Below, piece by piece: positions 33,310 to 49,071 of a DNA stretch of 64,000 nucleotides. The DNA is from Weeksella massiliensis. GTDB lineage: Bacteria; Bacteroidota; Bacteroidia; Flavobacteriales; Weeksellaceae. The stretch is from assembly GCA_000751595.1 (NCBI GenBank), contig CCMH01000004.1, forward strand, positions 124,001 through 188,000. Direction: 5' to 3'. The notes under the pieces were generated by a model. It searched no databases and was not told the origin of the DNA. It was given only the letters and a program-made list of their open reading frames with translations. The position numbers and the translations under genes are program-made. The stretch's first letter is position 1, and each line of letters opens with the position of its first letter.

Positions 33310-33585
33310 ACTTCGGCTCCGCTTGGTGGTTGAGTGTTGTCGAAACTTAGGGAGCACCCTTCGGCTTTCCCCTTCGACTTTCCTTCGACTCCGCTCAGGT
33401 AGCAGCTCAGGGTACAGCTTGGGGACCTCTTCGGCTCCGCTTGTTGGTTGAGTGTTGTCGAAACCCAGGGTAGAACCTTCGACTTTCCCCTTCGACTTCG
33501 CTCAGGGACCTCCTTCGACTCCGCTTGGTGGTTGAGCTTTGTCGAAACCCAGGTAGCAGCTCAGGGAACAGCTTAGGGTAAATGT
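33310..33585. repeat. Left array of hairpin repeats beside the GIY-YIG gene
   Basis: About 275 bases made of directly repeated units. Each unit reads roughly TTCGGCTCCGCTTGGTGG, then TTGAGTGTTGTCGAAAC. The outer parts TTCGRC and GTCGAA are inverted, so each unit can fold as a hairpin of about 35 bases. Three full units start near 33310, 33429 and 33513, separated by shorter fragments such as CTTCGACTTTCC and CAGCTCAGGG. GC content is clearly higher than in the neighbourhood. No coding frame with sense was found. Confidence 0.85.
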
Positions 33586-33633
33586 ATTAGTATTATTGTA
33601 GGATTAATACAGAAATCGTATTTTTATAAGAAC

Positions 33634-33942
33634 ATGAAAGGTTTTATGTACATATTGCTTTGTTCAGATGGTAGTTACTATACTGGTAGTACGATTAATC
33701 TTGAGTTGCGGTTAGAACAGCATCAAACAGGTAAAGGTGCTAATCATACCAAGAAGCATTTGCCTGTCTTGTTAGTTTATTTTGAAGAATTTGAGAGTAT
33801 TCAGGAAGCTTTTTATAGGGAGAAACAAATAAAAAGATGGAGTAGAAAGAAAAAAGAAGCTTTGATTGATGGGAGGAGTGATGACCTTAAAATGTTTTCG
33901 AAATGTATGAATGATTCTCATTGTAAAAGAGTAGATTCTTGA
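33634..33942 (+). CDS. GIY-YIG nuclease family protein
   Basis: This 102-residue protein is a single GIY-YIG domain of the UPF0213/YhbQ kind. The two core strands are seen as FMYILLCSDGSYYTGST (residues 4-20), the conserved arginine is in LELRLEQH, and the metal-binding glutamate is in FYREKQIKRWSRKKK. Such small domains cleave or nick DNA, but most cellular members have no known role. The gene is enclosed by two arrays of the same hairpin repeat; its stop codon (33940-33942) is the first bases of the right array. This suggests that nuclease and repeats move or spread together. Confidence 0.88.
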   Translation: MKGFMYILLCSDGSYYTGSTINLELRLEQHQTGKGANHTKKHLPVLLVYFEEFESIQEAFYREKQIKRWSRKKKEALIDGRSDDLKMFSKCMNDSHCKRVDS

Positions 33943-34262
33943 CTTTCCCCCTTCGACTTTCCTTCGGCTCCGTTGGCGGTTGAGCTTAGTCGAAACCCAG
34001 GGTACAGCTCAGGGGCCTCCTTCGGCTCCGCTTGGTGGTTGAGCTTAGTCGAAACCCAGGGTACAGCTCAGGGGCCTCCTTCGACTTCCCCTTCGACTTC
34101 GCTCAGGGACCTCTTCGACTCCGCTTGGTGGTTGAGCTTTGTCGAAACTCAGGGAACTGCTCAGGGACCCCTTCGGCTTCGCTTGGTGGTTGAGCTTAGT
34201 CGAAACCCAGGGAACACCCTTCGACTTTCCTTCGACTCCGCTCAGGTAGCAGCTCAGGGAAC
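33942..34262. repeat. Right array of hairpin repeats beside the GIY-YIG gene
   Basis: About 320 bases with four units in the same orientation as the left array, starting near 33963, 34020, 34112 and 34171. The units read CTTCGGCTCCGCTTGGTGG then TTGAGCTTAGTCGAAACCC. Intervening fragments (CAGGGTACAGCTCAGG, CCTTCGACTTCGCTCAG) are partial copies. An open frame across the array (33973-34296) is just translated repeat (recurring WWLSxVETQG) and is not regarded as a gene. Confidence 0.85.
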
Positions 34263-37929: not shown

Positions 37930-40900
37930 TTAATTTGTAAGAAGAATATTCTTTATATAATCTTCGGCATCATCATATTGAAAGTAAACATGATTCTCAT
38001 GAAAAACTTCTTTTGTTATTTGATTACCCCAACCTACATCAAAATGGCTTGTATTAGAAATAATATACGAATCTAATTCAATCCCAGCATTTAGTACTTG
38101 GGGTTGTATCTTTTCTTTTAAGACTTTGAAAAATTGAATCTTCGGATCGTTTATACCTTTAGAATTTCGAATTCCTTTTGGATCAATAAATTTAATTATT
38201 TGTTTATCCCCTTCTATAATCCACAAAATAAAATCAGGATAGAAATTATTACCATCTGTAAAGAATCCTAATCCTTTTTTACTTTGATTTCTCAGTACAT
38301 GAACTTCTTTGTCTTCTAAATGACTTGGTTTTGTACCTATATAAGTAATAAGATCATCTAGGAATTGTTTTTCAGAGGCATCTAACGGAATTGGGCTGAC
38401 TTGTAATTTTTCTTTATATGCTTTCCCTACATAAACTAAAGGTTTGTATAAGTGTAATAAATTATCAAAAGCTGATACTTCAGTTCCTATTTGAATTGAA
38501 TCAAAAGCAGGATCCATTACTTCTGTTTTTAACTGCTCAATTTTGGTCTGATACTGCTCAATTTCTTCTTCTGTATTTACTCTAAAATCATATTCTAATA
38601 CGAAATTATCATCCGTTCCTTTTAAATGAATCGCTTCTACGTGATGTGAGTTGAATTCATTTTTATAAAACAAATAGAATTGCTCAATGTATTTTTTCAA
38701 TAATGTTGTGGCTAACTCTTGCCAAATCTGTACATTACTATATTGTTTAAATTCCATTTTATGTTCAGGAATCAATAGATTGTACCAAGACACTTCCTTT
38801 AAGATTGCTTGTAATTGGTCTAACTCAATTTTTAAGTTGTGATACCCTTTATCCGCTTTGAAATTCTGAATGGCTAAGTAAATGGCATTCCAATTTAATA
38901 AGGTTATGTGCTGCGTACTTAAAAAAGCACTGTTTTTGTTTACTGCATTTCCAGAACTTTTCTTTTCTAATACATCAATTTTAGGATACCAATCCAACTC
39001 CACCATTTTCCCATCAAAAATAGAAGCATTGTACACTAAATGAACAAGAACTTTTTGTTTGAAGTTTTCCGAATCTTTTACGGCAATTAGTTTTAATCTG
39101 TTTTGTTGTACAATTTCTTTTTGTATTGAAGTTACTTTTATCGTAATCCACGCTGAATCATTGGCAGGTAAACCTTCTTCTTCTAAAAATTCTTTGAACT
39201 TCTCCATATAGTCGGCTTTTACACCAAAAATCTGAAGTGTTTCTAAATGTCTTAGGTATTTTTTCAAGGCTCTGATATTATCCGGTTTTTGATATTCATC
39301 TAAACCAGTTGAACGTTTTAAGGAAAAATTATAGCCTTTTAAACGAACCCCACGACCAAACAATTGAATGATTTGAGAACCTTCGCTTTTACCAACATTC
39401 ATTAATCCCATAGACGAAACCCGCCAAGATGACCAACCTTCTGAAAACTTTTTAGAACCAATTAGCAAATTGATTGTAGAAGTATCTTCATTAATTTTTT
39501 TGAATAGGGAATCTGAAAAATCACGATCTGTACCCAAAACGTGATTATTTAATGCTAAATCATGTAATTTCTTTTCATCGCCTACATTGATAACACCAAA
39601 ATAGTCATTATCACCTACGCGAAGTCCTAACTCGCCATCTGCACCTTTCAGATTATCTACATACAAATTGGCACCAATTGTGGTGTTATTGAAAACCAAT
39701 TCATTGATTAAATTGAAGATAGTAGCTCCATCTAAATTTTGTTCTTTGATGTAGGTAAATGAGGTTTCGAAAATAGAATACCCATTTTTGTCTACCAATC
39801 CTGCTTTATCAGTAATGACCGCCTCTATATTCTGGATAGAAACTGTAGGATTCTTTAAGAAATCGGTTAGGAAATAGATAATTTCCAAAACATCTGAAAC
39901 TTCTTTTCCTTTTTCTCTACGAACGGCATTTACTTTTCCACCTACAAAAATCCATAAAGGTTTATGTAAAAGAAAATCCCTTAAAGCTGTTTTCTGCTCC
40001 TTAAAAATCAATTGTTGTTGGAAAAAAGAAACTAAATTCGCCGTCAGATATAATTGCTGATAAGCAGTATTATCTTCTTTTAAATTTAGAATGCGGTAAT
40101 CTTTTCCATACCCATCTTCATAAAAATATTTGTACGAATAATCGAACAAAATACTTTTTGCATATTCTTGTGTAAATTCGGTTTTCTTAGCACCTGAAGC
40201 AGCATTAATCGCCTGACCAAAGGTTGCTGAGTATTCAAAAGCAAAACCTGTTAAACTTAATTGATCTCTGAATCGTTTCCACGAATCACCAGACATTCCT
40301 CCGTGACCTTCATCAATTAAAACTAAGTTGTCGGTCTCAAAACTTTCTACTGCAACCGTTTTATCACCACTGTTTTCTGCCAGTTTAGTAATCTCTAAGA
40401 TTTCTACTTGTTTACCCGAAAACATACCAGAATCGTTTTTAGAGAAGTTATTCGCTCTAATATCAGAAAGCTTAAATTCCGCTAAATGTTGCTTCGTTAA
40501 TCCTTCATTTGGCGTGATTAACAATACTTTGTTTTGATGGCCTTGGTTGTATTGGTTGGCATAATGCAAATATTGCTTGATGTTGATGTGCATCAACAAA
40601 GTTTTACCCGAACCAGTGGCATTCCAAAATGCTAATTTATTGAGGTTTTCTAAGGTAAAAGGCTGTGCAATAAACTCGTCTTTCTTTTTTTTCTTCCCTG
40701 CATTGGCTTGTGCTTGTTTCAGGTTGAATTCTTTGACAAATTCATTGACATCTGCCAACAATTTGACTTTATTACTGAAATACTTATCCAAGTACACCTC
40801 CGTAAACAATAAAGAAAGATATTGGAAATACTTCCAAGTGATCTGTTCCTCACGTTTTTCAGAAATCTGTTTGGTATAGCGTACAATGTTTTCGTCATAG

Positions 40901-41127
40901 GTTTGCAGCATCGTAGCCGTCATATGATCAGAATTATACATATGCGCAATTAAAGCTTGCAAATATTTGGTATTGCCTTCTTCTGTATAGCCTTCGTTAG
41001 AAGAAAGCTTTAATTCGGTAAAAATTTCTACGCCTTTTTTACCGATGATTTTTTTGCCAATGCTATCAATTCCGAAAAGCGATAGCATATACTTATTGAG
41101 TACAAGTTTGTCGTGAAAGTTTGCCAT
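37930..41127 (-). CDS. res: Type III-like restriction subunit: DEAD/DEAH helicase with PD-(D/E)XK nuclease
   Basis: This 1065-residue protein has an SF2 helicase core with Walker A ATGSGKT (170-176) and a Walker B DEGH (272-275). Helicase domain 2 contains the line SEGSQIIQLFGRGVRLKGYN, typical of type III Res subunits. The C-terminus carries a nuclease-like site: FYPDFILW (Asp965) followed by FIDPKG (Asp982, Lys984), i.e. PD-x16-DxK. It should cut DNA that the methyltransferase has left unmodified, after ATP-driven movement. It is the last gene of the seven-gene operon, 5 bases after the SecB-like gene. This separation of res from mod by a three-gene module is unusual. Confidence 0.87.
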   Translation of the reverse strand: MANFHDKLVLNKYMLSLFGIDSIGKKIIGKKGVEIFTELKLSSNEGYTEEGNTKYLQALIAHMYNSDHMTATMLQTYDENIVRYTKQISEKREEQITWKYFQYLSLLFTEVYLDKYFSNKVKLLADVNEFVKEFNLKQAQANAGKKKKKDEFIAQPFTLENLNKLAFWNATGSGKTLLMHINIKQYLHYANQYNQGHQNKVLLITPNEGLTKQHLAEFKLSDIRANNFSKNDSGMFSGKQVEILEITKLAENSGDKTVAVESFETDNLVLIDEGHGGMSGDSWKRFRDQLSLTGFAFEYSATFGQAINAASGAKKTEFTQEYAKSILFDYSYKYFYEDGYGKDYRILNLKEDNTAYQQLYLTANLVSFFQQQLIFKEQKTALRDFLLHKPLWIFVGGKVNAVRREKGKEVSDVLEIIYFLTDFLKNPTVSIQNIEAVITDKAGLVDKNGYSIFETSFTYIKEQNLDGATIFNLINELVFNNTTIGANLYVDNLKGADGELGLRVGDNDYFGVINVGDEKKLHDLALNNHVLGTDRDFSDSLFKKINEDTSTINLLIGSKKFSEGWSSWRVSSMGLMNVGKSEGSQIIQLFGRGVRLKGYNFSLKRSTGLDEYQKPDNIRALKKYLRHLETLQIFGVKADYMEKFKEFLEEEGLPANDSAWITIKVTSIQKEIVQQNRLKLIAVKDSENFKQKVLVHLVYNASIFDGKMVELDWYPKIDVLEKKSSGNAVNKNSAFLSTQHITLLNWNAIYLAIQNFKADKGYHNLKIELDQLQAILKEVSWYNLLIPEHKMEFKQYSNVQIWQELATTLLKKYIEQFYLFYKNEFNSHHVEAIHLKGTDDNFVLEYDFRVNTEEEIEQYQTKIEQLKTEVMDPAFDSIQIGTEVSAFDNLLHLYKPLVYVGKAYKEKLQVSPIPLDASEKQFLDDLITYIGTKPSHLEDKEVHVLRNQSKKGLGFFTDGNNFYPDFILWIIEGDKQIIKFIDPKGIRNSKGINDPKIQFFKVLKEKIQPQVLNAGIELDSYIISNTSHFDVGWGNQITKEVFHENHVYFQYDDAEDYIKNILLTN

Positions 41128-41132
41128 ATCTG

Positions 41133-41567
41133 TTATAGTTTAATATGGATATCTTCTGTAAACATTTTATCCACGTTTACTAACCCAATAATGAATTGGT
41201 TAAAAGGCGTATTTTTGGTATTCGCAAATAAAACTCCACGAGCTGTTCCCGTCGTAATCATTGCTAAATGTTTTGCTGTACCACAAGGTAAAATAATAGC
41301 CTCCGTTTGAACTAGTTTTTCCTTAAAAGCCTTTGGCTCAATTTCAAAATAACAGGTTATTTCTAATTTTGTTAGTGGCTGGTTTTGTTTGTGCAATACA
41401 AACTCCATTGCCACTGCTATGATATTATTTTCTGCATCACAACCGAATCCAAAACCAATTTGTTGTTGGATACGTTCTTCAATGACTAATGCATCTTCGA
41501 AAACTGAAAATTGATTCTCTTCAACCTTAACAATTTTAAATGGTATTGGTAATTCTTTTTTACTCAT
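41133..41567 (-). CDS. SecB-like chaperone of a toxin-antitoxin-chaperone module
   Basis: This 144-residue protein has the strand order of SecB. After several beta strands (IIAVAMEFVLHK, LTKLEITCYFEI) come the helix and loop HLAMITTGTARGVLFANT, then NTPFNQFIIGLVNVDKMF. This parallels the SecB C-terminal region (helix, RG, FPxLNLxPVNFxxLF). SecB-like proteins next to HigB-HigA pairs form TAC systems, where the chaperone folds the antitoxin. Here it follows an XRE gene by 4 bases and a toxin-like gene precedes that, giving the order toxin-antitoxin-chaperone seen in TAC operons. The family call rests on pattern only and should be treated as probable. Confidence 0.58.
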   Translation of the reverse strand: MSKKELPIPFKIVKVEENQFSVFEDALVIEERIQQQIGFGFGCDAENNIIAVAMEFVLHKQNQPLTKLEITCYFEIEPKAFKEKLVQTEAIILPCGTAKHLAMITTGTARGVLFANTKNTPFNQFIIGLVNVDKMFTEDIHIKL

Positions 41568-41571
41568 AAAA

Positions 41572-42012
41572 TTAAGCTGTTAAGGTGTTATAGTTATTCT
41601 CATACAAACTGTCCTCACTCATTGTGATTGCAGGTTTAACTACCTTAGTAACATTTGTAAAAGAATAATCGTCAGAAGACGTTACTTTTACTTCTTCTGA
41701 TTTTGACGTAGTTGATTTCACTACCACGTTAATTAATTCAACGCCTAATATTTGACTTAATTTTGCAAGGGTATCTAAGGTAAAGTTTTCATTCCCCTTT
41801 ACCCATTTGTTTACTTGCTGAGGAGAAACCTCCATTTTTTCAGCTAAGTCTTTCTGCTTCCATTTTAACTCGTCTAAACGAATCAAAATAGATAAAGCAA
41901 TCTTTTTAGAATACCTGGTGTAGCTTCTTCTAGCAATTCTTGCTTTTAATTCTTCTACAGCATTTGTATCTTCTTGTGAAACCAATGCCTTAAATGTTTC
42001 TTTATTGCTCAT
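41572..42012 (-). CDS. XRE-family antitoxin with C-terminal extension
   Basis: This 146-residue protein has an N-terminal helix (about 1-35), a Cro/C1-type helix-turn-helix at about 50-95 (WKQKDLAEKMEVSPQQVNKW, FTLDTLAKLSQILG), then a tail of about 50 residues rich in Ser, Thr, Lys and Val. In chaperone-controlled TAC systems the antitoxin carries a C-terminal chaperone-addiction sequence; this tail is a candidate. Its gene lies 4 bases after the toxin-like gene and 4 before the SecB-like gene. It probably represses its own operon or a promoter inside it. Confidence 0.7.
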   Translation of the reverse strand: MSNKETFKALVSQEDTNAVEELKARIARRSYTRYSKKIALSILIRLDELKWKQKDLAEKMEVSPQQVNKWVKGNENFTLDTLAKLSQILGVELINVVVKSTTSKSEEVKVTSSDDYSFTNVTKVVKPAITMSEDSLYENNYNTLTA

Positions 42013-42016
42013 TGTT

Positions 42017-42535
42017 TTATTCGTTTAAAAATTCATAGAAAGAATCTTCGTCAAATATTCCTTGTTCTTTAAGATATTCTTTTGCTCTATTTAGTTTATC
42101 GAGCTCTTGTCTGGTATGATCTCTGTCTTTCATTAAGTGATGGAACTTAATGGCTCCACCGGTAATCACAAATGTGTCCTGATCTATACGTATGGCGTAC
42201 AATCTCAAATAAGACTGCCGACCTTTTTGAAGAGATAATATTTTGAATTGATGCTCATTGTTGTCTAAAGGTTTAAAGAAATACTCCAATGTTTTGTCGG
42301 GCGAATTGATGATTTCATTTAAAGTATCATCTATCCATAGAGCGTCTTCATTGATTTTGTCCATTAAGCCTTCCAGGTCATAATCGTTTGGCCAATCTCG
42401 TTTGTTTTCTTTCAAAAAACCATACAAATACTCGATATCGTCCCATAGTCCTACTATTTTACGGTACGCATTATCCGCTTCTCCTTCGTAATGGAAAGCG
42501 AATAACCGTTTTGCAAAGATAGGGACTATTTTCAT
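42017..42535 (-). CDS. Toxin candidate of the HigB/RelE kind
   Basis: This 172-residue protein is acidic in its first half (about 1-85) and has a C-terminal part that looks like a RelE/HigB toxin core: FKILSLQKGRQSYLRLYAIR, then VITGGAIKFHHLMKDRDHTR and QELDKLNRAKEYLKEQG. The pattern of a basic strand LRLYAIR, GGAIK and a final helix is seen in Bacteroidota proteins paired with XRE partners. Its position directly before an XRE gene supports a toxin role, possibly as a ribosome-dependent RNase. It begins 102 bases after mod, beyond a hairpin repeat. Function inferred, not shown. Confidence 0.5.
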   Translation of the reverse strand: MKIVPIFAKRLFAFHYEGEADNAYRKIVGLWDDIEYLYGFLKENKRDWPNDYDLEGLMDKINEDALWIDDTLNEIINSPDKTLEYFFKPLDNNEHQFKILSLQKGRQSYLRLYAIRIDQDTFVITGGAIKFHHLMKDRDHTRQELDKLNRAKEYLKEQGIFDEDSFYEFLNE

Positions 42536-42585
42536 AAAATCAACTTATAGGTTTATTTTTTATTTTGACTATGCCTTTCTCTTCC

Positions 42586-42637
42586 CTTCGACTACGCTCA
42601 GGGAACGAAAGGAATTGGTAGCTGAGCGGAGCCGAAG
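42586..42637. repeat. Hairpin repeat at the end of mod
   Basis: Left arm CTTCGACTACGCTCAG (42586-42601) and right arm CTGAGCGGAGCCGAAG (42622-42637) are inverted copies matching at 14 of 16 positions with a 20-base loop. The right arm ends exactly next to the mod stop codon (42638-42640). The arms are the same family as the arrays around the GIY-YIG gene. The hairpin may act in termination or messenger stability between mod and the toxin-like gene. Confidence 0.8.
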
Positions 42638-45616
42638 CTACAATTCCGAAATATTAAACATTTGCTTAAAGAAAGTTTCCTCGATTAGTTTTACTTTGAA
42701 GGTATCTTCACCTGTACGCATATTATCGAAATGATGATCGCCATTAATGTAGATTTGATCAAACTCAGAAGAACGTACGCTATCGTAGATTTTACGGAAA
42801 CGTTGTGCGGTTTCTTCATTACTTGTAGTTTCTAGATTGCGCCAAATGACTAAGGTTTTGATGCCTTCTCGAGTTTTACCCTCTACAAACTTGATATCGC
42901 CTACACGTTGCACACGCTCTACATACAAGCCAATTAAATAGTTGAAGGTTTCTACTAAATCTATTGTTGTAGGTACCAATTCGTTGTTTTCTGTTACCTT
43001 TAATTGGTAATTGAACGGATTACGGAACATTTGTACATTGAGCAAATGATCTTGTGTTTCTACATCCAACATATAGTTTAAGAGGTACTCTTCTTGCGCT
43101 TGCTCGTCAAAGTTTAATAAAGCGGCATTGGTTTTATTGGGTAATTGCAAATTGTTTAAGGCATCTTCATACGATTCTAAGACTTGGTATTTGAATAGTT
43201 GCGAAATACCTGCTTTATCTTGCGGTTTACCGTTTTTCCAGTTATCGGTATAAATGACTTTTTGAATACGTGGTTTGGTTACGGTATTAAAATACGTACC
43301 CATTTCTACCAAGATATATTTACGATTTCCGGGTGCTGAGCCTGTCGAAGCATCTTCACGGTTTAATTTTATGGTAGCGTGACCAGTAGTTCCTGAACCT
43401 GCGAAATAGTCGAGAATGATGGAGTTACTTACTGAACTGATTTTTTCTATATATTGAATTAAATTAGATGGTTTTGGAAATGAAAAACTGTTGTATCCAA
43501 ATAAATTAGATATTTCTTCAGATCCCATCCCGTTACTATAATTTATCAATGCTCTATAAGGTAAACTACGAATATATTTTTCACCATTATTATCCACGAA
43601 TTGGTATTGTTTTATATATACTTTTTCTTTTTCATTATCAATAACAACAAACCCATTCTTTATTCCCCAATCAAACTTATTTTCACTCCATCTCCAAGTA
43701 TTTGGTCTTCCAAAAAAACCTCCTGGATAAATATGTTTACCATTAGATAATTTTATAGGATAGTCGCCTGATTCAGAATATGAACCTTTATAGTCCATAT
43801 CTCTTAAATAGTATTTTCCTCTTTCTTTTACATACTCATCCGAATGTTTATATTTATTATCATTCTCAACATCAATAGGCTCCTGATTTATATTTACCAT
43901 TGATTTATTTTTACAAAATAATGTAATATAGTCATATTCAATTGCTAAATTTTTAGAATCGTGTCCAGAACCAGATTTGTTTTTACGAATCATATTCGCT
44001 AAATAATTTTCATTGCCGAAAATATTTTTTAAAATTCCAACTAAATTTATATTTTCATTATCATCAGTACTTATAAAAATAGAACCTGAGTTGCTAATTA
44101 AATTTTTAGAAAAAATCAATCTGTTCATCATAAAAGATAACCAACTCGAACTTTGAAAACCATCCTTATAAGTAAACCCATCATTACCTGTATTATAAGG
44201 TGGATCAATATAAGTTGTATCAATCTTCTCCTGATACTTTTCCTGAATTACATTCAATGCTTGGAAATTCTCTGAATTGATTAATAAACCATTAGTTTCT
44301 TCGTCTAAATTGTCGAATTCGGCTAATAGCTTGTCTTTGAATTCTTCGGAGTAAAATTTTGTATCTAATACCAGATAAGGTTCGTTTCGAAGAGATTCCT
44401 CACTACCGTTCGGAATGACAACGTCAAATAACTCTTTCCACTCGTCTAATTGTGCTTGGTTTGCTACAATTTCAGGATAGTATTTTTCAGGAATACGGTC
44501 TAAGGTGATGCAGTAATTGGTACTGATGACGAACTTTTTCTTCAGCCATAATTTCTTTTGGAAATCTTCTATCTGCGCTAAGAAGGTAATAATTTTAGAC
44601 GCCACCGTTTTCAACGCTTTTATCTTGGATAATTGCGCTGTAAAAAAAGCTGGATTTTCGGTATTGATGTCGTCGATGAATAAGACTTCGTTTTTAATAT
44701 AAAAGTCCAACTCACGACGTAAAAATCCACCTAAATCTTTATGTATAAAATAATCGAATGTATTTCGCGAAATAAAATCGTTTAGATGTTTTTCTAGAAT
44801 CGTACGGTTTTTATTTTTTTCGGTTGGTGCTTTATCGAAAAGCAAGGTAAAGTCAAAAGCTGGGGCTTCGACAAGCTCAGCCACCGCATTTTGAATGACT
44901 TCAATTGCCTTGGCTTCCAAATCCGCTTGTTTTACCGTTTTCTTATACGGTTCGTAGGTAAAATTGATGTATAATTGAGCATCGATTACTTCCACAGGTT
45001 GTTCCTCATAAATGGCAAAACGACGTTCTTGATCGCCTTGTGCTTTATTGTTGTTTTGTTCGGTAGAAGCTTCTTTTAATTGGAAATGAACCGATTTACC
45101 ATCTTTTAATTTAAAGCTGTAATTCTTTAGATATTCCGATGTTTTGATATAATACTGGTCGTGATTTGCCCAATGCAGTTTTACTTCCTCACCTTCATAC
45201 GGAATGGCATACACGTCTTTCTTATAGCGGCGTAAGGAAATAAAATCACCGTCTTTGTAATAACGTTTGAAGAAATTAGCCAAATGCGAAAATACTTCCT
45301 GCTCTAAAGCATTGGTATCAATGGCATTTTCTAACTGTGCTTTGAGGGCTATATATTTAGGAGCCGATTCACGAGCAACACCCGCATCATCCAAAGATTT
45401 ACCCAATTGATCTAATTCTGCTTGAATACTTACAGCCTCTTTAGATTGTGTTTGCGCTAATATGTCTTTGATATCTTTAGGTAATCGACGATCGATAAAA
45501 TCCATCACCTGATCGCGTTTTTGATTCATAATGCGGTAGATCCCAAAATCTAAATCCGCCTTATCCATCTCAAATATTTCTTTTAAAACCTTTTGTAAAT
45601 TTTCGTAATTGTTCAT
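42638..45616 (-). CDS. mod: Type III-like DNA methyltransferase (adenine-N6, beta class)
   Basis: This 992-residue protein has the motif order of beta-class amino-methyltransferases: catalytic DPPYNTG at 471-477, SAM-binding FAGSG at 738-742 (DYFAGSGTTGHA). An N-terminal extension of about 450 residues and a C-terminal region make it much longer than a standard Mod (600-700 residues). It should methylate adenine in the recognition sequence and so protect the host. Three in-frame segments match dispersed repeats: VIPNGSEESL (400-409), AELVEAP (246-252) and DASTGSAP (755-762). It follows the transposase gene by 15 bases. Confidence 0.88.
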   Translation of the reverse strand: MNNYENLQKVLKEIFEMDKADLDFGIYRIMNQKRDQVMDFIDRRLPKDIKDILAQTQSKEAVSIQAELDQLGKSLDDAGVARESAPKYIALKAQLENAIDTNALEQEVFSHLANFFKRYYKDGDFISLRRYKKDVYAIPYEGEEVKLHWANHDQYYIKTSEYLKNYSFKLKDGKSVHFQLKEASTEQNNNKAQGDQERRFAIYEEQPVEVIDAQLYINFTYEPYKKTVKQADLEAKAIEVIQNAVAELVEAPAFDFTLLFDKAPTEKNKNRTILEKHLNDFISRNTFDYFIHKDLGGFLRRELDFYIKNEVLFIDDINTENPAFFTAQLSKIKALKTVASKIITFLAQIEDFQKKLWLKKKFVISTNYCITLDRIPEKYYPEIVANQAQLDEWKELFDVVIPNGSEESLRNEPYLVLDTKFYSEEFKDKLLAEFDNLDEETNGLLINSENFQALNVIQEKYQEKIDTTYIDPPYNTGNDGFTYKDGFQSSSWLSFMMNRLIFSKNLISNSGSIFISTDDNENINLVGILKNIFGNENYLANMIRKNKSGSGHDSKNLAIEYDYITLFCKNKSMVNINQEPIDVENDNKYKHSDEYVKERGKYYLRDMDYKGSYSESGDYPIKLSNGKHIYPGGFFGRPNTWRWSENKFDWGIKNGFVVIDNEKEKVYIKQYQFVDNNGEKYIRSLPYRALINYSNGMGSEEISNLFGYNSFSFPKPSNLIQYIEKISSVSNSIILDYFAGSGTTGHATIKLNREDASTGSAPGNRKYILVEMGTYFNTVTKPRIQKVIYTDNWKNGKPQDKAGISQLFKYQVLESYEDALNNLQLPNKTNAALLNFDEQAQEEYLLNYMLDVETQDHLLNVQMFRNPFNYQLKVTENNELVPTTIDLVETFNYLIGLYVERVQRVGDIKFVEGKTREGIKTLVIWRNLETTSNEETAQRFRKIYDSVRSSEFDQIYINGDHHFDNMRTGEDTFKVKLIEETFFKQMFNISEL
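43336..43350. repeat. Dispersed repeat half-site inside mod (encodes ASTGSA)
   Basis: CTGAGCCTGTCGAAG on the + strand, in frame within mod just after motif I. It matches the core CTTCGACnnGCTCAG of the repeats seen at 33.3-34.3 and 42.6 kb. Confidence 0.7.
44392..44419. repeat. Second repeat type inside mod (encodes VIPNGSEESL)
   Basis: On the minus strand it starts GTCATTCCGAACGG and continues TAGTGAGGAATCTC. It resembles the widespread dispersed repeat of the form GTCATTCCGAnnGnAGnGAGGAATCT found in many bacterial genomes. Here it lies in the mod reading frame before the catalytic DPPY motif. Confidence 0.6.
44866..44880. repeat. Dispersed repeat half-site inside mod (encodes AELVEA)
   Basis: CTTCGACAAGCTCAG on the + strand, in frame in the mod N-terminal extension, opposite in orientation to the copy at 43336. 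Confidence 0.7.
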
Positions 45617-45631
45617 GTTTACAATTATTTT

Positions 45632-46219
45632 TTATGCTAATTCATCGGTATCCCAATTTTCAGGATTTGTGATGATGTATTTTTTGATACGTTGATAATC
45701 TATTTCTGTTCTGATAATGACATCGTGATAACGAGATTGCCAACCTGACGGTAACCCTAAACGGTTACAATGTTTGGTTACCGCTGATTTATACGAACCA
45801 ACAATGGTTGATAGATTTGGTGGTGGTGGTGGTAGGGACAGGGCATGCCCTGTCCCTACAACAATATTATTTTGCCCTGTCCCTACCATATTATTCTGCC
45901 CTGTCCCTACAACAATATTATTTTGTCCTGTCCCTTCCATATTATCCGTTTCCATCGTTGGTTTTATGATAATAATTCCGTGTACGTGATTGGGCATTAT
46001 CACGTATTCGTCTAATTCTACATTGCGAAAATGATTTTTAATTTCATACCACAATATATTGGCTATAATACCTGAATGCGAATGGTGCATTTTACCGTTT
46101 ATTATTTCACCCAAAATCGGCGATCTGTCTTTGGTACAAATCGTCACAAAATATGCTGCAGGATTTGTATAATCCCACCATTTTGCTCTTGGCGACTTTC
46201 TATTTTTTAACGGACACAA
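45632..46219 (-). CDS. RAYT-type Y1 (HUH) transposase
   Basis: This 195-residue protein belongs to REP-associated tyrosine transposases. The HUH motif is IMPNHVHGIII (His-x-His), the early strand AAYFVTICTKDR and the late YHDVIIRTEIDYQRIKKYI with NPENW supply the catalytic Tyr helix and family signature. A short low-complexity insert, repeated GTGQNN units and a proline run, corresponds to a DNA repeat within the gene. The start is TTG at 46219, since no in-frame ATG precedes the conserved region. It sits in the operon between SNF2 (14 bases) and mod (15 bases), so it has been inserted or recruited there without breaking the operon. Confidence 0.87.
   Translation of the reverse strand: MCPLKNRKSPRAKWWDYTNPAAYFVTICTKDRSPILGEIINGKMHHSHSGIIANILWYEIKNHFRNVELDEYVIMPNHVHGIIIIKPTMETDNMEGTGQNNIVVGTGQNNMVGTGQNNIVVGTGHALSLPPPPPNLSTIVGSYKSAVTKHCNRLGLPSGWQSRYHDVIIRTEIDYQRIKKYIITNPENWDTDELA
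45832..45938. repeat. Palindromic REP-like repeats inside the transposase gene
   Basis: Positions 45832-45859 form a perfect 28-base palindrome centred on GGGCATGCCC with outer arms GTAGGGACA/TGTCCCTAC. Three further half copies GCCCTGTCCCTAC follow at 45874, 45898 and (with changes) 45925, spaced 27, 24 and 27 bases, all multiples of three. In the protein they give the repeated VGTGQNN units. Confidence 0.85.
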
Positions 46220-46233
46220 ACTATTATTTCGAT

Positions 46234-49071
46234 TTATATTAACTCAAAAGAAATGGTGAAAACTTCTTCTTCTGTTATTGTTCTGTTTAATTTACTCTTC
46301 GCTTCAGCAATCATTTGGTCGCGTTCTTCGTTGATTTCATCCTCACGATCAAACATTTCTCTTTTCAGGCGTGATACTTTTTTCTTCGCCTTTGCTAATT
46401 TTTCCTGCATCGCTAAAGCTTCTGCACCAGATAATCCTTCCTGCATTGCAGCTTTATCAATTTCTTTTTCTTCTTTTTTGGCTTCTTTTAATTCAGATTC
46501 TAATTCAAAAATCTTATCATCTGCCCAGTTATGGAATTTTTTAAATTCACGTTGCATTAAAGCAGCATCGTTGTTTTCTAAATACTTTAATCTTTCTTGT
46601 TTAATGATAGAATGGTGTTTTTCAATTGTATCTAAATCACCTTTAAAAGTATCTTTGATGGTAGAATCAAGCCCTAACAAAAATCGGCAAATATCGTCAT
46701 TTAATACTTCGTTTTCGGCAGTAATTCCCGAAAAAAGTAATACCGAATGTGATTCGATTTCAGATGACACTTCTAAATTGCTCACTCTCAATATTCCGGA
46801 GTTTGATTTTAAGTTGCTAATTTCAGAATGGTTCATCATTGCCCCACTAAAATCAAATGAAAGATGCGCTAAAGGAGTTTTTTCTTTTTTGCCTTGGTTA
46901 ATGATTTTCTGAGCAATTGGTCCATTGATAAAAAAACGTTTCGCATCTTCTCGCTTCTTGTTCAACGAATATTTTTCGCCATTATCGAGAATAAAGGTAT
47001 AATCATCAAAAATAAATTGTGCTTTGTTTTGAAGATAGAATTGGGTTAATTCCCACAACCATTTTTCGAATTTCTCGATAAATACTTTGGTATCTGAATA
47101 CGTGGTACGCAGTTTATCGATGACACTTGCTTCGAAATGATCAAACAATTTCGATTGAACTTCTTTAACCTTTAGATTAATTTGGTCTTCGAATTCAGTT
47201 TGTAACTGGTTGAAATAATCTTCTATTTCTTCTTTGGTACGACACATTTTGTAGACCTCGATGATTCGTTTTTCGAAATCGACACCACTTTCTATTGAGC
47301 CTAAGACTTCATCAGAAGAACCAAAAACACCTTCGAATAAGCGAAATTTTTTTTCTAGCAACTCATACACTCTGGTTTCTACTGCATTCGCTGCATTGAT
47401 AAAATTAACTACCACTACATCAAACTCTTGACCATAACGATGGCAACGACCAATGCGTTGTTCTACACGTTGTGGATTCCATGGTAAATCGTAATTAACA
47501 ATCATACTACAGAACTGTAAATTGATTCCTTCTGCTGCTGCTTCGGTAGCAATCATGATATCATAATGATCACTTTTGAAAGCATCTACTAAGGCTTGTC
47601 TGATATCGACCGCTTTAGATCCAGTAACTTTTCCAGCATTTTTATCATTGACAATCCAATCACGATAAATTTGATTGGATATAGGATCAGAATTACTCCC
47701 ATTAAAGGTTAAAATTCTTTCTGCATATTTTTCTTTTGATAAACGCTCTAATAAATATTGTTGTGTTCGGGTAGATTCTGTAAAGATTAAGGCTTTTTGC
47801 TTTGCACCTAATTCATTTAGTTTAGCAAAACCTTTGTCTAAAGCAATTAATAATTTCTCTCCTTTTTCATTATGTTGTATGCTATTTGCCAGAATTAAAA
47901 ACTCCTCTAGCTGCTTGATTTCTTCTTCTATCGCAATTTTGTCATCTAGTGTGATTTCATTAAAATCCTCTTCATCAATAATTTCACCTTCATCGAATTC
48001 ATCATCAAGATTTTCATATTCTTCTAAGAACATTTCATACAAATCATCTTCTACGATTTTTGAAGATTCCAATAGCATTTTTAACCTTTTTAATAAAGAT
48101 TCTAATGTTCTACTAATTGCGAAAGAAGATGAACCCAATAATTTAAAAATTACAGATTGCATTAAATGTTTTTGAGCGGGCGGAAAAGCATAGGTTCTTT
48201 CCTGTCTAAGATATTCTAAAACTTTATCGTATAATTCTTGTTCTTCTTTTGTAGGTGTAAATTGTTGTGTAATTGGGATACGCTCCCTATAGTTAATAAA
48301 TTCCTTAACATCCTTTCTTAGTGTTCTGTGAACTATAGAACTCAATCTTTCCTTCAAACCATCGATATCACGATTTCCGGATTCTAAAATGTAGTTGCGT
48401 CTAAAACTTTTGATGTCACCAAAAATCTCAGGATCAATAAAAGACACTAAACCATACAATTCATCTAATCTATTTTGCAAAGGAGTAGCTGTAAGTAACA
48501 CTTTTTTATAAGCACGAATTGCGTTTTGTATGGTTTTAGCTATAACATTTCCATATTTATAGGCATTTCTTAAATAATGTGCTTCGTCTAACACCACCAA
48601 ATCCCATGAAGTTAATTGTATTTCTTCCGCACGTTTACGAGCAAATTGATAACTACAAATTTTTATGGTATGTCCATGATCAAATGGATTTTTAATTCCA
48701 GATTTTGTTTGTTTGTTGTAAGATATATTGTCTAATACTTCAGCTTTAAGATAAAACTTATCTTCTAGTTCGTTTACCCATTGTTTACGTAGAGAAGAAG
48801 GACAAATTATTAATATTTTTCTTTTTCCTTCAGCCCATTTTTGACTTAATAAAATCCCAGCTTCAATAGTTTTACCTAAACCTACTTCGTCTGCAAGAAT
48901 AGCTCCTTTAGAATATGGTGATTTAAAAGCAAATAAAGCGGCTTCCACTTGGTGAGGATTTAGTTCTACTTTGGCATCCATTAAGGTTGCTCCGAACTTT
49001 TCTGGGCTATCTGAAGCTGCTTTTTTAGATAATTCGTAGGCGTAATATTTAGCTTGGTATTGGTTGATCAT
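46234..49071 (-). CDS. SNF2-family helicase (HepA/RapA-like) of the restriction operon
   Basis: This 945-residue protein has the SNF2 core: DEVGLGKT (61-68), DEAH (162-165), TATPLQNRLDELYGL, and domain 2 with TEAAAEGINLQF and QRIGRCHRYGQ. A very acidic insert lies near 345-395. The C-terminal third ends in a long charged coiled coil (about 840-925). Such proteins translocate on double-stranded DNA or displace bound proteins. It is the first gene of the operon; restriction loci with SNF2 proteins, such as class 1 DISARM with DrmD, use them as motor components. No DrmA, DrmB or DrmC was seen. Confidence 0.87.
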   Translation of the reverse strand: MINQYQAKYYAYELSKKAASDSPEKFGATLMDAKVELNPHQVEAALFAFKSPYSKGAILADEVGLGKTIEAGILLSQKWAEGKRKILIICPSSLRKQWVNELEDKFYLKAEVLDNISYNKQTKSGIKNPFDHGHTIKICSYQFARKRAEEIQLTSWDLVVLDEAHYLRNAYKYGNVIAKTIQNAIRAYKKVLLTATPLQNRLDELYGLVSFIDPEIFGDIKSFRRNYILESGNRDIDGLKERLSSIVHRTLRKDVKEFINYRERIPITQQFTPTKEEQELYDKVLEYLRQERTYAFPPAQKHLMQSVIFKLLGSSSFAISRTLESLLKRLKMLLESSKIVEDDLYEMFLEEYENLDDEFDEGEIIDEEDFNEITLDDKIAIEEEIKQLEEFLILANSIQHNEKGEKLLIALDKGFAKLNELGAKQKALIFTESTRTQQYLLERLSKEKYAERILTFNGSNSDPISNQIYRDWIVNDKNAGKVTGSKAVDIRQALVDAFKSDHYDIMIATEAAAEGINLQFCSMIVNYDLPWNPQRVEQRIGRCHRYGQEFDVVVVNFINAANAVETRVYELLEKKFRLFEGVFGSSDEVLGSIESGVDFEKRIIEVYKMCRTKEEIEDYFNQLQTEFEDQINLKVKEVQSKLFDHFEASVIDKLRTTYSDTKVFIEKFEKWLWELTQFYLQNKAQFIFDDYTFILDNGEKYSLNKKREDAKRFFINGPIAQKIINQGKKEKTPLAHLSFDFSGAMMNHSEISNLKSNSGILRVSNLEVSSEIESHSVLLFSGITAENEVLNDDICRFLLGLDSTIKDTFKGDLDTIEKHHSIIKQERLKYLENNDAALMQREFKKFHNWADDKIFELESELKEAKKEEKEIDKAAMQEGLSGAEALAMQEKLAKAKKKVSRLKREMFDREDEINEERDQMIAEAKSKLNRTITEEEVFTISFELI

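What the first reader, a model, noticed from the sequence alone, without database searches (positions are those of the whole stretch)
41133..42535. Toxin-antitoxin-chaperone (TAC-like) module inside a restriction operon
Between mod and res lie three tightly packed genes (4, 4 and 5 bases apart): a HigB/RelE-like toxin candidate, an XRE protein with a 50-residue tail, and a SecB-like protein. The order toxin, antitoxin, SecB-like chaperone is that of TAC operons such as HigB1-HigA1-Rv1957 of M. tuberculosis. Placing such a module between mod and res could couple restriction to abortive growth arrest: if res or the chaperone is lost, or a phage disturbs protein folding or export, the antitoxin would be lost and the toxin released. 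I know of no described type III system with this arrangement. Sequence facts are the gene order and motifs; the mechanism is inference.
Basis: partly seen in the sequence, partly recalled or inferred. Interest (0 to 1): 0.85.

Follow-up and report, generated by a model that had tools for sequence, protein, structure and literature searches.

The report
Chaperone-guarded toxin module inside restriction operon
Between the two genes of a bacterial DNA-restriction system lies a toxin-like gene, its likely antidote and a SecB-shaped chaperone, probably a second-line virus alarm that relatives carry inside several other kinds of defence operon.

Summary
Between an intact-looking type III mod and res lie three minus-strand genes, spaced 4, 4 and 5 bases. 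Neither outer protein has a significant Pfam or NCBIfam match, but high-confidence models give a HigB/RelE fold (172 aa) and a SecB fold (144 aa); the middle one is an XRE protein with a ~50-residue tail. This is a divergent toxin-antitoxin-chaperone (TAC) module. (1) In 116 loci, the antitoxin's aromatic-rich tail occurs almost only with the chaperone gene (40 aa or more: 89 of 92 with, 1 of 24 without), as expected of a chaperone-addiction tail. (2) A palindrome, AACYTATARGTT, sits at a near-fixed place before the toxin, also in embedded copies. The trio recurs in SNF2-mod-res (3 lineages, window included), other type III, hsdS-hsdR and BREX operons, by many separate moves, but often stands alone. 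PADLOC already models the proteins as candidate PDC-M64; antiphage TACs and a toxin-antitoxin pair inside hsdS-hsdR are published; my searches showed no paper on a TAC between mod and res. Most likely it is a phage-triggered growth-arrest module backing up restriction. That the antitoxin also gates res is untested: the boldest open reading.

The parts
42017..42535 (-). toxin gene, 172 aa, HigB/RelE fold
   Evidence: AlphaFold model mean pLDDT 93.9; VIA Z 9.5 to a S. pneumoniae toxin-antitoxin toxin 6af4, 8.2 to HigB1 7nbu, then RelE/ParE/HigB toxins; no significant Pfam/NCBIfam match; PADLOC PDC-M64B 3.7e-5
41572..42012 (-). XRE antitoxin, 146 aa, with ~50-residue C-terminal tail (putative chaperone-addiction region)
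   Evidence: HTH_3 2.2e-12; PDC-M64C 2.1e-16; tail/chaperone association
41133..41567 (-). SecB-like chaperone, 144 aa
   Evidence: model mean pLDDT 90.7; Foldseek prob 1.00 to SecB 1qyn and to the TAC chaperone Rv1957 5mtw; VIA Z 10.3 and 8.9; PDC-M64C PDLC04763 1.2e-9
42542..42553 (.). palindromic putative antitoxin operator, AACTTATAGGTT on + / AACCTATAAGTT on -, 6 bases before the toxin ATG
   Evidence: only exact copy in the window; core before the toxin in 76 of 117 loci, 0 of 2039 random windows
42638..45616 (-). mod, type III DNA methyltransferase, 992 aa
   Evidence: PADLOC MTase_III 8.5e-216; N6_N4_Mtase 5.6e-35
37930..41127 (-). res, type III restriction subunit, 1065 aa
   Evidence: PADLOC REase_III 3.5e-197; ResIII 1e-11
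46234..49071 (-). SNF2 helicase, 945 aa, upstream gene on the same strand, likely of the same operon
   Evidence: NF038318 DrmD_b 672.8 bits, below its cut-off of 950; precedes mod in L115, L117, L195, L196, L201, L215, L216
45632..46219 (-). REP-associated (RAYT-type) transposase gene between the SNF2 gene and mod; probably a later insertion
   Evidence: NF047646 1.8e-15, 57.1 bits, below its cut-off of 80; absent from between SNF2 and mod in L115 and L117
42586..42602 (+). REP-like element in the mod-toxin gap
   Evidence: five matches in the window, this one included, none expected

Best explanation
It is a toxin-antitoxin-chaperone (TAC) module lodged as accessory cargo between mod and res. 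At rest the SecB-like chaperone binds the antitoxin's C-terminal tail and keeps the XRE antitoxin folded; the antitoxin neutralises the HigB-fold toxin and, with it, sits on the palindrome before the toxin gene and represses the module. When a phage escapes restriction, an abundant newly made phage protein occupies the chaperone, the antitoxin is degraded, the toxin stops translation, and growth arrest limits the phage while restriction can act. Shown here by computation: gene order, folds, tail-chaperone link, conserved palindrome, repeated embedding. Inferred from published TAC systems: neutralisation, chaperone titration, antitoxin loss, translation block, phage trigger. Not shown: any dependence between toxin and res.
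For: Folds. Antitoxin tail of 40 aa or more in 89 of 92 loci with the chaperone gene and 1 of 24 without; on the toxin tree 5 independent contrasts on well-supported branches, of which a mean of 4.8 go with the chaperone and 0 against; tails hold 11.6% F/W/Y against 4.5% in the rest of the same proteins, 88 of 92 with three or more. Published: chaperone-addiction tails are absent from chaperone-independent antitoxins and are transferable (PMC5105189, abstract and passages). Palindrome core before the toxin in 76 of 117 loci, mostly at one of two distances, 0 of 2039 random windows. Embedding: 40 of 92 non-duplicate trios lie within 400 bp of an R-M, BREX or SNF2 gene on the same strand, 23 flanked on both sides by the same kind of system (16 type I, 6 type III, 1 BREX); key labels checked by family models. 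Antiphage action of TAC systems: CmdTAC senses capsid protein (PMC11618068, abstract and passages); HigBAC and lambda tail protein (PMC11980606, passages); MqsRAC works together with McrBC restriction (PMC10783111, abstract and passages).
Against: I have no toxicity, binding or phage data for this family and found none in the searches. Toxin and chaperone match HigB and SecB by fold only; hhalign of the chaperone profile with E. coli SecB gave probability 1.4%, 0 of 30 chaperone relatives hit PF02556 and 0 of 30 toxin relatives hit any Pfam model. Most trios are not next to labelled restriction genes: 52 of 92; in an even draw of the class only 3 of 18 fetched loci lay between hsdS and hsdR, one of them a two-gene pair. 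None of 20 other Res homologue loci with mod in view carries it. At lower tail thresholds the independent contrasts agree less (3.4 and 3.6 of 5).
Confidence: 0.68

Rival explanations
1. The XRE antitoxin mainly serves as a controller of restriction: bound to the palindrome between mod and the toxin it holds back transcription into res, so that methylation precedes restriction in a new host, and antitoxin loss in infection raises Res.
For: The palindrome lies between mod and res; a looser form of it was found in 35 of 42 loci with a defence neighbour against 52 of 75 others; the next defence gene follows the trio at a median of 29 bp in the 23 doubly flanked loci, 5 bp here; controller proteins of R-M systems are XRE proteins (recalled).
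Against: The palindrome is also typical of stand-alone modules, so it need only autoregulate; in L080, L189, L046, L052 and L156 the restriction gene lies before the module, not after it; two-gene forms without chaperone occur in the same slot (L121, L229). No promoter was identified (18 found, 21.5 in shuffles).
Confidence: 0.25
2. The trio is an addiction module that stabilises the restriction operon in the genome: cells that lose the locus lose the labile antitoxin and are arrested.
For: General property of type II TA modules (established knowledge); many separate changes of neighbourhood on the toxin tree suit a mobile, selfish module.
Against: Chaperone dependence adds nothing obvious to this role; only 3 plasmid records match the toxin and no viral contig was confirmed, whereas it recurs inside defence operons.
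Confidence: 0.25
3. A guard of the restriction enzyme in the manner of PrrC in EcoprrI: inhibition of Res or Mod by a phage anti-restriction protein is sensed and frees the toxin.
For: PrrC is embedded in a type I operon and senses restriction inhibition (PMC12707154, passages).
Against: The same toxin family sits beside different type I, III, IIG, McrBC and BREX proteins and often alone, so a common restriction partner is unlikely; the sensor that anatomy suggests is the chaperone.
Confidence: 0.12
4. Accidental neighbour: an ordinary mobile TA-like module that happened to insert between mod and res and has no functional link with restriction.
For: 52 of 92 trios have no labelled defence neighbour; the mod-res junction holds other cargo in 9 of 20 relatives.
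Against: Same operon kept in three lineages with identities to the window of 60-63% for the toxin and 70-77% for Res; both-sided embedding in 23 of 92 trios, against 0 of 39 SecB-like loci without the toxin that have any such neighbour (the neighbour library came from trio loci, which favours the trios).
Confidence: 0.2

Closest known systems
PADLOC-DB phage defence candidate PDC-M64
   Same: Its models match all three proteins; PDC names come from a guilt-by-embedding survey (PMC10855318 and PMC12988326, passages; the source preprint is not held and was not read)
   Different: In the library copy a bare candidate name without description; whether its authors call it a HigB-XRE-SecB TAC is not known to me; no paper in the library holds the name
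HigB1-HigA1-Rv1957 TAC of M. tuberculosis
   Different: Profile searches of the PDB sequences up to E 10 did not list either protein; here embedded in defence operons; other phylum
CmdTAC, HigBAC and MqsRAC antiphage TAC systems of E. coli
   Same: SecB-like chaperone, antitoxin that depends on it, toxin that stops translation; MqsRAC cooperates with restriction (PMC10783111)
   Different: The passages read do not place them inside a restriction operon; CmdT is an mRNA ADP-ribosyltransferase (PMC11618068), MqsR another RNase
DarTG2 in the RptR-regulated type I locus of enteropathogenic E. coli
   Same: A toxin-antitoxin pair between hsdS and hsdR, a site called a potential recombination hotspot (PMC12255303, passages)
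   Different: Other toxin, no chaperone in the passages read, separate regulator RptR; type I
PrrC in EcoprrI
   Same: Translation-blocking effector embedded in an R-M operon (PMC12707154, passages)
   Different: Single gene that senses inhibition of the restriction enzyme itself; no antitoxin-chaperone pair

Membership tests
TAC (toxin-antitoxin-chaperone) modules | Three adjacent genes: toxin, antitoxin, SecB-like chaperone | tested here: met
   Window, and 92 non-duplicate loci in all, window included
TAC (toxin-antitoxin-chaperone) modules | Antitoxin carries a C-terminal chaperone-addiction extension, lacking in two-gene relatives | tested here: met
   By anatomy and association only: 40 aa or more in 89 of 92 against 1 of 24; binding not tested
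TAC (toxin-antitoxin-chaperone) modules | Chaperone needed for neutralisation of the toxin | not testable with these tools
   Needs expression tests
SecB | SecB fold | tested here: met
   Foldseek prob 1.00, TM 0.55-0.62 to 1qyn chains; VIA Z 10.3, rmsd 3.1, 120 aligned to 1fx3
SecB | Membership of sequence family PF02556 | tested here: not met
   0 of 30 members at E 0.01; hhalign with E. coli SecB prob 1.4%
SecB | Tetramer with client groove | not testable with these tools
   No complex prediction on hand
HigB / RelE superfamily toxins | RelE (BECR-type) fold | tested here: met
   VIA Z 9.5, rmsd 3.2, 112 aligned to 6af4; 8.2 to 7nbu; rows down to about rank 39 nearly all RelE/ParE/HigB-type; Foldseek alone weaker, best E 4.8e-3, TM below 0.5
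HigB / RelE superfamily toxins | Match to a toxin family model | tested here: not met
   0 of 30 members hit any Pfam model at 0.01; no NCBIfam hit for P0001
HigB / RelE superfamily toxins | Ribosome-dependent mRNA cleavage | not testable with these tools
   Residues invariant in 52 rows, among them R111, Y113, T125, G126, G127, K130, are candidates only
HigA-type antitoxins | XRE/HTH_3 protein downstream of its toxin | tested here: met
   HTH_3 2.2e-12; but below the HigA cut-off of NCBIfam, 27.2 of 47.7 bits
HigA-type antitoxins | Binds a palindromic operator before the toxin gene | tested here: inconclusive
   Conserved palindrome found; binding not tested
PDC-M64 (PADLOC candidate) | Hits of the three proteins to its models | tested here: met
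   toxin hit weak (3.7e-5)
Type III restriction-modification | mod and res with catalytic motifs | tested here: met
   activity not testable
DISARM | Helicase that reaches the cut-off of a DrmD model | tested here: not met
   672.8 bits against 950, 256.5 against 610
DISARM | drmA, drmB and drmC alongside | not tested
   Only the seven proteins of this operon were scanned; other window genes were not
R-M controller (C) proteins | XRE protein that regulates R and M genes | not testable with these tools
   Position of the palindrome fits; a weak hit to PADLOC Control_protein, 0.0057; function untested

The most novel reading that the evidence does not exclude
One antitoxin-bound palindrome works as a shared switch for two layers of immunity: by occupying the chaperone, a phage protein removes the XRE antitoxin, which at once frees the toxin and lifts repression of the restriction gene downstream. 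SecB-type chaperone sensing would then be a plug-in phage alarm that several unrelated methylation-based systems (type I, type III, BREX) have each acquired.
Probability: 0.2. Interest if true: 0.85.

Novelty: new variant of a known kind. Interest (0 to 1): 0.6.

Why it matters
It gives an identity (HigB-fold toxin, tail-bearing XRE antitoxin, SecB-fold chaperone) to a candidate defence module that PADLOC lists only by number, whose chaperone family is found in 77 of 395 sampled Bacteroidota genomes (this also counts chaperones without the toxin), and shows that TAC modules repeatedly become internal parts of restriction and BREX operons. It makes testable whether a protein-folding sensor and DNA restriction act as one layered response, and offers natural pairs with and without chaperone in the same slot to study how chaperone addiction arises.

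Tried and rejected
Sequence routes to the folds failed: PDB profile searches with 30-member alignments gave no hit for the chaperone and three chance-like hits for the toxin; Pfam and NCBIfam gave nothing significant for either. Only structure models settled the folds.

Idea that the trio is proper to type III systems: rejected; 25 Res-homologue loci (from 24 of the 34 positive of 395 genomes; 20 of them with mod in view) hold no trio, while type I, BREX, McrBC-adjacent and IIG-adjacent loci do.

Idea that the trio always lies before the restriction gene: rejected; L080 and L189 have res-trio-mod, and L046, L052, L041 and L156 have hsdR before the trio.

Idea that the palindrome marks a wider regulon: three exact sites in the own genome against six for the reversed control, so no excess; the two other sites were not followed beyond an ORF list.

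Sigma-70-type promoter scan: no excess over shuffles; such scans need not cover the promoters of this phylum.

Ten large unlabelled neighbours had no PADLOC hit at 1e-15 except an SNF2-like one in L186, so I did not count the other nine as defence genes.
Full report
WHAT IS THERE. On the minus strand run an SNF2 helicase gene (49071-46234), a REP-type transposase gene (46219-45632), mod (45616-42638), the trio (42535-41133) and res (41127-37930); the gaps within and after the trio are 4, 4 and 5 bases. Mod and Res look intact: type III methyltransferase and restriction models at 8.5e-216 and 3.5e-197, with DPPY, GSGKT, DEGH and a PD...DPK motif in place (motifs recalled).

IDENTITY OF THE THREE PROTEINS. 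By sequence, only the middle one is recognisable in Pfam (HTH_3, 2.2e-12). PADLOC matches all three to models named PDC-M64 (toxin candidate 3.7e-5, XRE 2.1e-16, third protein 1.2e-9). I collected relatives and built alignments of 52 and 53 rows. The toxin model has mean pLDDT 93.9; VIA-align puts first a S. pneumoniae toxin-antitoxin toxin (6af4, Z 9.5, rmsd 3.2, 112 aligned; 6af3 likewise) and M. tuberculosis HigB1 (7nbu, Z 8.2, rmsd 4.0, 115 aligned), followed almost only by RelE, ParE and HigB toxins. Foldseek alone was weaker (best E 4.8e-3, TM under 0.5). The third protein's model has mean pLDDT 90.7; Foldseek gives E. coli SecB (1qyn, prob 1.00, TM 0.55-0.62) and the TAC chaperone Rv1957 with its antitoxin peptide (5mtw, prob 1.00). 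VIA gives SecB Z 10.3 and Rv1957 Z 8.9; two streptococcal proteins of unknown function stand between and near them (9.3, 8.4), and rows unrelated to SecB start at 5.3. Sequence comparison with SecB fails: hhalign with E. coli SecB 1.4%, 0 of 30 relatives in PF02556. So the protein has a SecB fold but is not in the SecB sequence family as Pfam draws it; likewise none of 30 toxin relatives hits any Pfam model.

CONSERVATION OF THE TRIO. The PADLOC chaperone model finds matches in 77 of 395 Bacteroidota genomes, the window's own included. I fetched 80 places (77 of the 85 places outside the window, eight weak ones left out, and 3). With the window, 42 of 81 loci hold toxin, XRE and chaperone genes in this order on one strand. 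A second, toxin-led set of 80 named loci (best 80 of 574 confirmed in a capped scan) plus the window gave 54 with all three, 24 with toxin and XRE but no chaperone, one cut by a contig end and two without a recognised XRE gene. Three rows repeat others by identical toxin (L050=L170, L051=L189, L044=L043); without them there are 92 trios.

THE TAIL GOES WITH THE CHAPERONE. Measured from the end of the HTH core, the antitoxin tail is 40 aa or longer in 89 of 92 loci with the chaperone gene and in 1 of 24 without. On the toxin tree, 5 independent contrasts rest on well-supported branches; over random pairings a mean of 4.8 go the same way and none the other; five pairs cannot reach p = 0.05 by themselves. 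At lower thresholds (25, 35 aa) the agreement is weaker (3.4 and 3.6 of 5), again with none against. An uncorrected rank test on 95 against 24 rows, repeats included, gave p = 8e-14, which ignores kinship. The tails differ widely in sequence but hold 11.6% F/W/Y (rest of the same proteins 4.5%) and 6.8% Y (0.9%); 88 of 92 have three or more aromatics. This fits what is published of chaperone-addiction (ChAD) tails: variable in length and sequence, absent from chaperone-independent antitoxins, transferable (PMC5105189; abstract and passages). A telling pair lies in one slot: L121 (between hsdS and hsdR; 107-aa XRE, no chaperone gene) is sister, on a starred branch, to L125 (155-aa XRE with chaperone).

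A CONSERVED PALINDROME. Within -80 to +90 of the called toxin start, the core ACYTATARGT is found in 76 of 117 loci, mostly at exactly -17 or at -8/-9, against 0 of 2039 random windows of the same length from the same loci. The consensus over 89 loci found with a looser pattern is aaAAAaTaAACcTATAaGTTGATTt.ATG; the looser pattern is present in 35 of 42 loci with a defence neighbour and 52 of 75 others. The core is also in two-gene forms (13 of 25), so it goes with toxin and XRE and is most simply the antitoxin's operator (inference). In the window its only exact copy is 42542-42553; in the whole own genome there are three exact sites, no more than the reversed control.

WHERE THE MODULE LIVES. 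Large neighbours of first-set trios were named by PADLOC (20 proteins) and Pfam (hsdS, McrC, HsdM and HsdR labels confirmed on examples) and served as a search library. Of 92 trios, 40 have such a gene within 400 bp on the same strand (six of these by scores under 200 bits; L156, L071 and L049 then got Pfam support) and 23 are flanked on both sides by one kind of system: 16 type I (15 as hsdS-trio-hsdR, L156 as hsdR-trio-hsdM), 6 type III (window, L115, L117 and L054, whose mod is split in two frames, as mod-trio-res; L080 and L189 as res-trio-mod, the res of L189 cut by the contig end) and 1 BREX (L039, brxC-trio-pglX). L139, L151, L154 and L144 are type I loci with further genes in between. 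One-sided cases include type IIG genes, brxL and McrBC. Median gaps in the doubly flanked cases are 46 bp before and 29 bp after. As a control, 0 of 39 chaperone loci lacking the toxin have such neighbours, but the library came from trio loci and the control is biased by that. On a quick tree of 117 toxins, neighbourhood changes at least 28 times; well-supported branches alone force at least 7 changes for type I, 4 for type III and 4 for IIG (long branches, SH-aLRT support only). Sampling matters: in an even draw of 395 genomes of the class, 18 had the toxin, the window's own included; of the 18 loci fetched from the 17 others, 3 lay between hsdS and hsdR, one of them without chaperone (contig lengths show that several repeat loci seen before). 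The module is thus an independent cassette that often, not always, moves into defence operons.

THE MOD-RES JUNCTION. In the window, L115 and L117 the order SNF2-mod-toxin-XRE-chaperone-res is the same, but for the transposase gene of the window; identities of L115/L117 to the window are 63/60% toxin, 60/53% XRE, 66/58% chaperone, 63/57% Mod, 77/70% Res, 80/72% SNF2. P0005 (Res) has homologues in 34 of 395 genomes; of 25 loci fetched from 24 of these none has the trio. Of the 20 with mod in view, 9 have mod and res overlapping by 1 or 4 bases, 2 have short gaps, and 9 hold other cargo: DUF1016/YhcG nucleases in L200, L212, L215, L216 and by likeness L201 and L203, an Abi_C-like gene with a partner in L195 (just under the Pfam cut-off), a REP-type transposase in L210, a DUF559 protein in L214. 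The junction looks like a cargo slot.

MECHANISM. In CmdTAC newly made capsid protein takes the chaperone from the antitoxin, which ClpP then degrades (PMC11618068; abstract and passages). In HigBAC the lambda major tail protein plays that part (PMC11980606; passages). MqsRAC works with McrBC restriction against T2 (PMC10783111; abstract and passages). By analogy I propose that here a phage protein titrates the SecB-like chaperone, the tail-bearing antitoxin is lost, and the HigB-fold toxin arrests translation as a back-up for the type III system. Steps shown: anatomy, folds, tail-chaperone association, palindrome, recurrent embedding. Steps inferred: neutralisation, titration, toxicity, phage trigger.

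WHAT IS KNOWN. PDC denotes phage defence candidates found by guilt-by-embedding and released in PADLOC-DB v2 (PMC10855318, PMC12988326; passages). The source preprint is not held and I have not read it; it may describe PDC-M64 further. TA embedding between hsdS and hsdR is published for DarTG2 (PMC12255303; passages). A recent BREX survey describes embedded nucleases, but its main text holds neither chaperone nor SecB (PMC12839542; find). A review of SecB chaperones counts 52 of 688 SecB sequences next to TA genes (PMC4257090; passages). In the listings of my searches I saw no paper on a TAC inside a restriction operon (some searches listed only 20 of 48, 15 of 74, 15 of 118 and 12 of 63; PDC-M64 itself 0 papers); most subscription papers and all bioRxiv preprints are outside the library. 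I therefore rate it a new variant of a known kind.

Noticed in passing
window 46234-49071; L115, L117, L195, L196, L201, L215, L216: An SNF2 helicase gene precedes mod in many relatives of this type III system, so SNF2-mod-res looks like a conserved three-gene operon; it resembles DISARM DrmD but scores below that model's cut-off.
   Followed up: partly
window 45632-46219, 42586-42602, 33383-34246; L128, L144, L210: A REP-type transposase gene sits inside the operon, with a REP-like element in the mod-toxin gap and a cluster of four at 33-34 kb; similar transposase genes lie inside other R-M loci.
   Followed up: partly
L195, L200, L201, L203, L210, L212, L214, L215, L216: The mod-res junction of 9 of 20 relatives holds other cargo, mostly DUF1016/YhcG nucleases, in place of the trio.
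   Followed up: partly
L220 (own genome, contig C37, 6871-7062): A second, divergent SecB-like protein of 139 aa (PF02556 21.8 bits, below the cut-off of 26) beside 83-aa and 206-aa genes; possibly another chaperone-linked module.
   Followed up: no
L231: Three tandem copies of the toxin-XRE pair, without a chaperone gene.
   Followed up: no
L093, L094, L098, L100, L104, L112, L113: Among the 39 chaperone loci without the toxin, several share one gene order (337 aa, 288 aa, then about 540 aa on the other strand, then the SecB-like gene), all in one genus-level group (g60), as if a solitary SecB-like chaperone were conserved there.
   Followed up: no
L051 = L189: Trio beside a type III-like Mod (861 aa) and an 876-aa protein whose C-terminal part matches a TIR-like ThsB model.
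   Followed up: no
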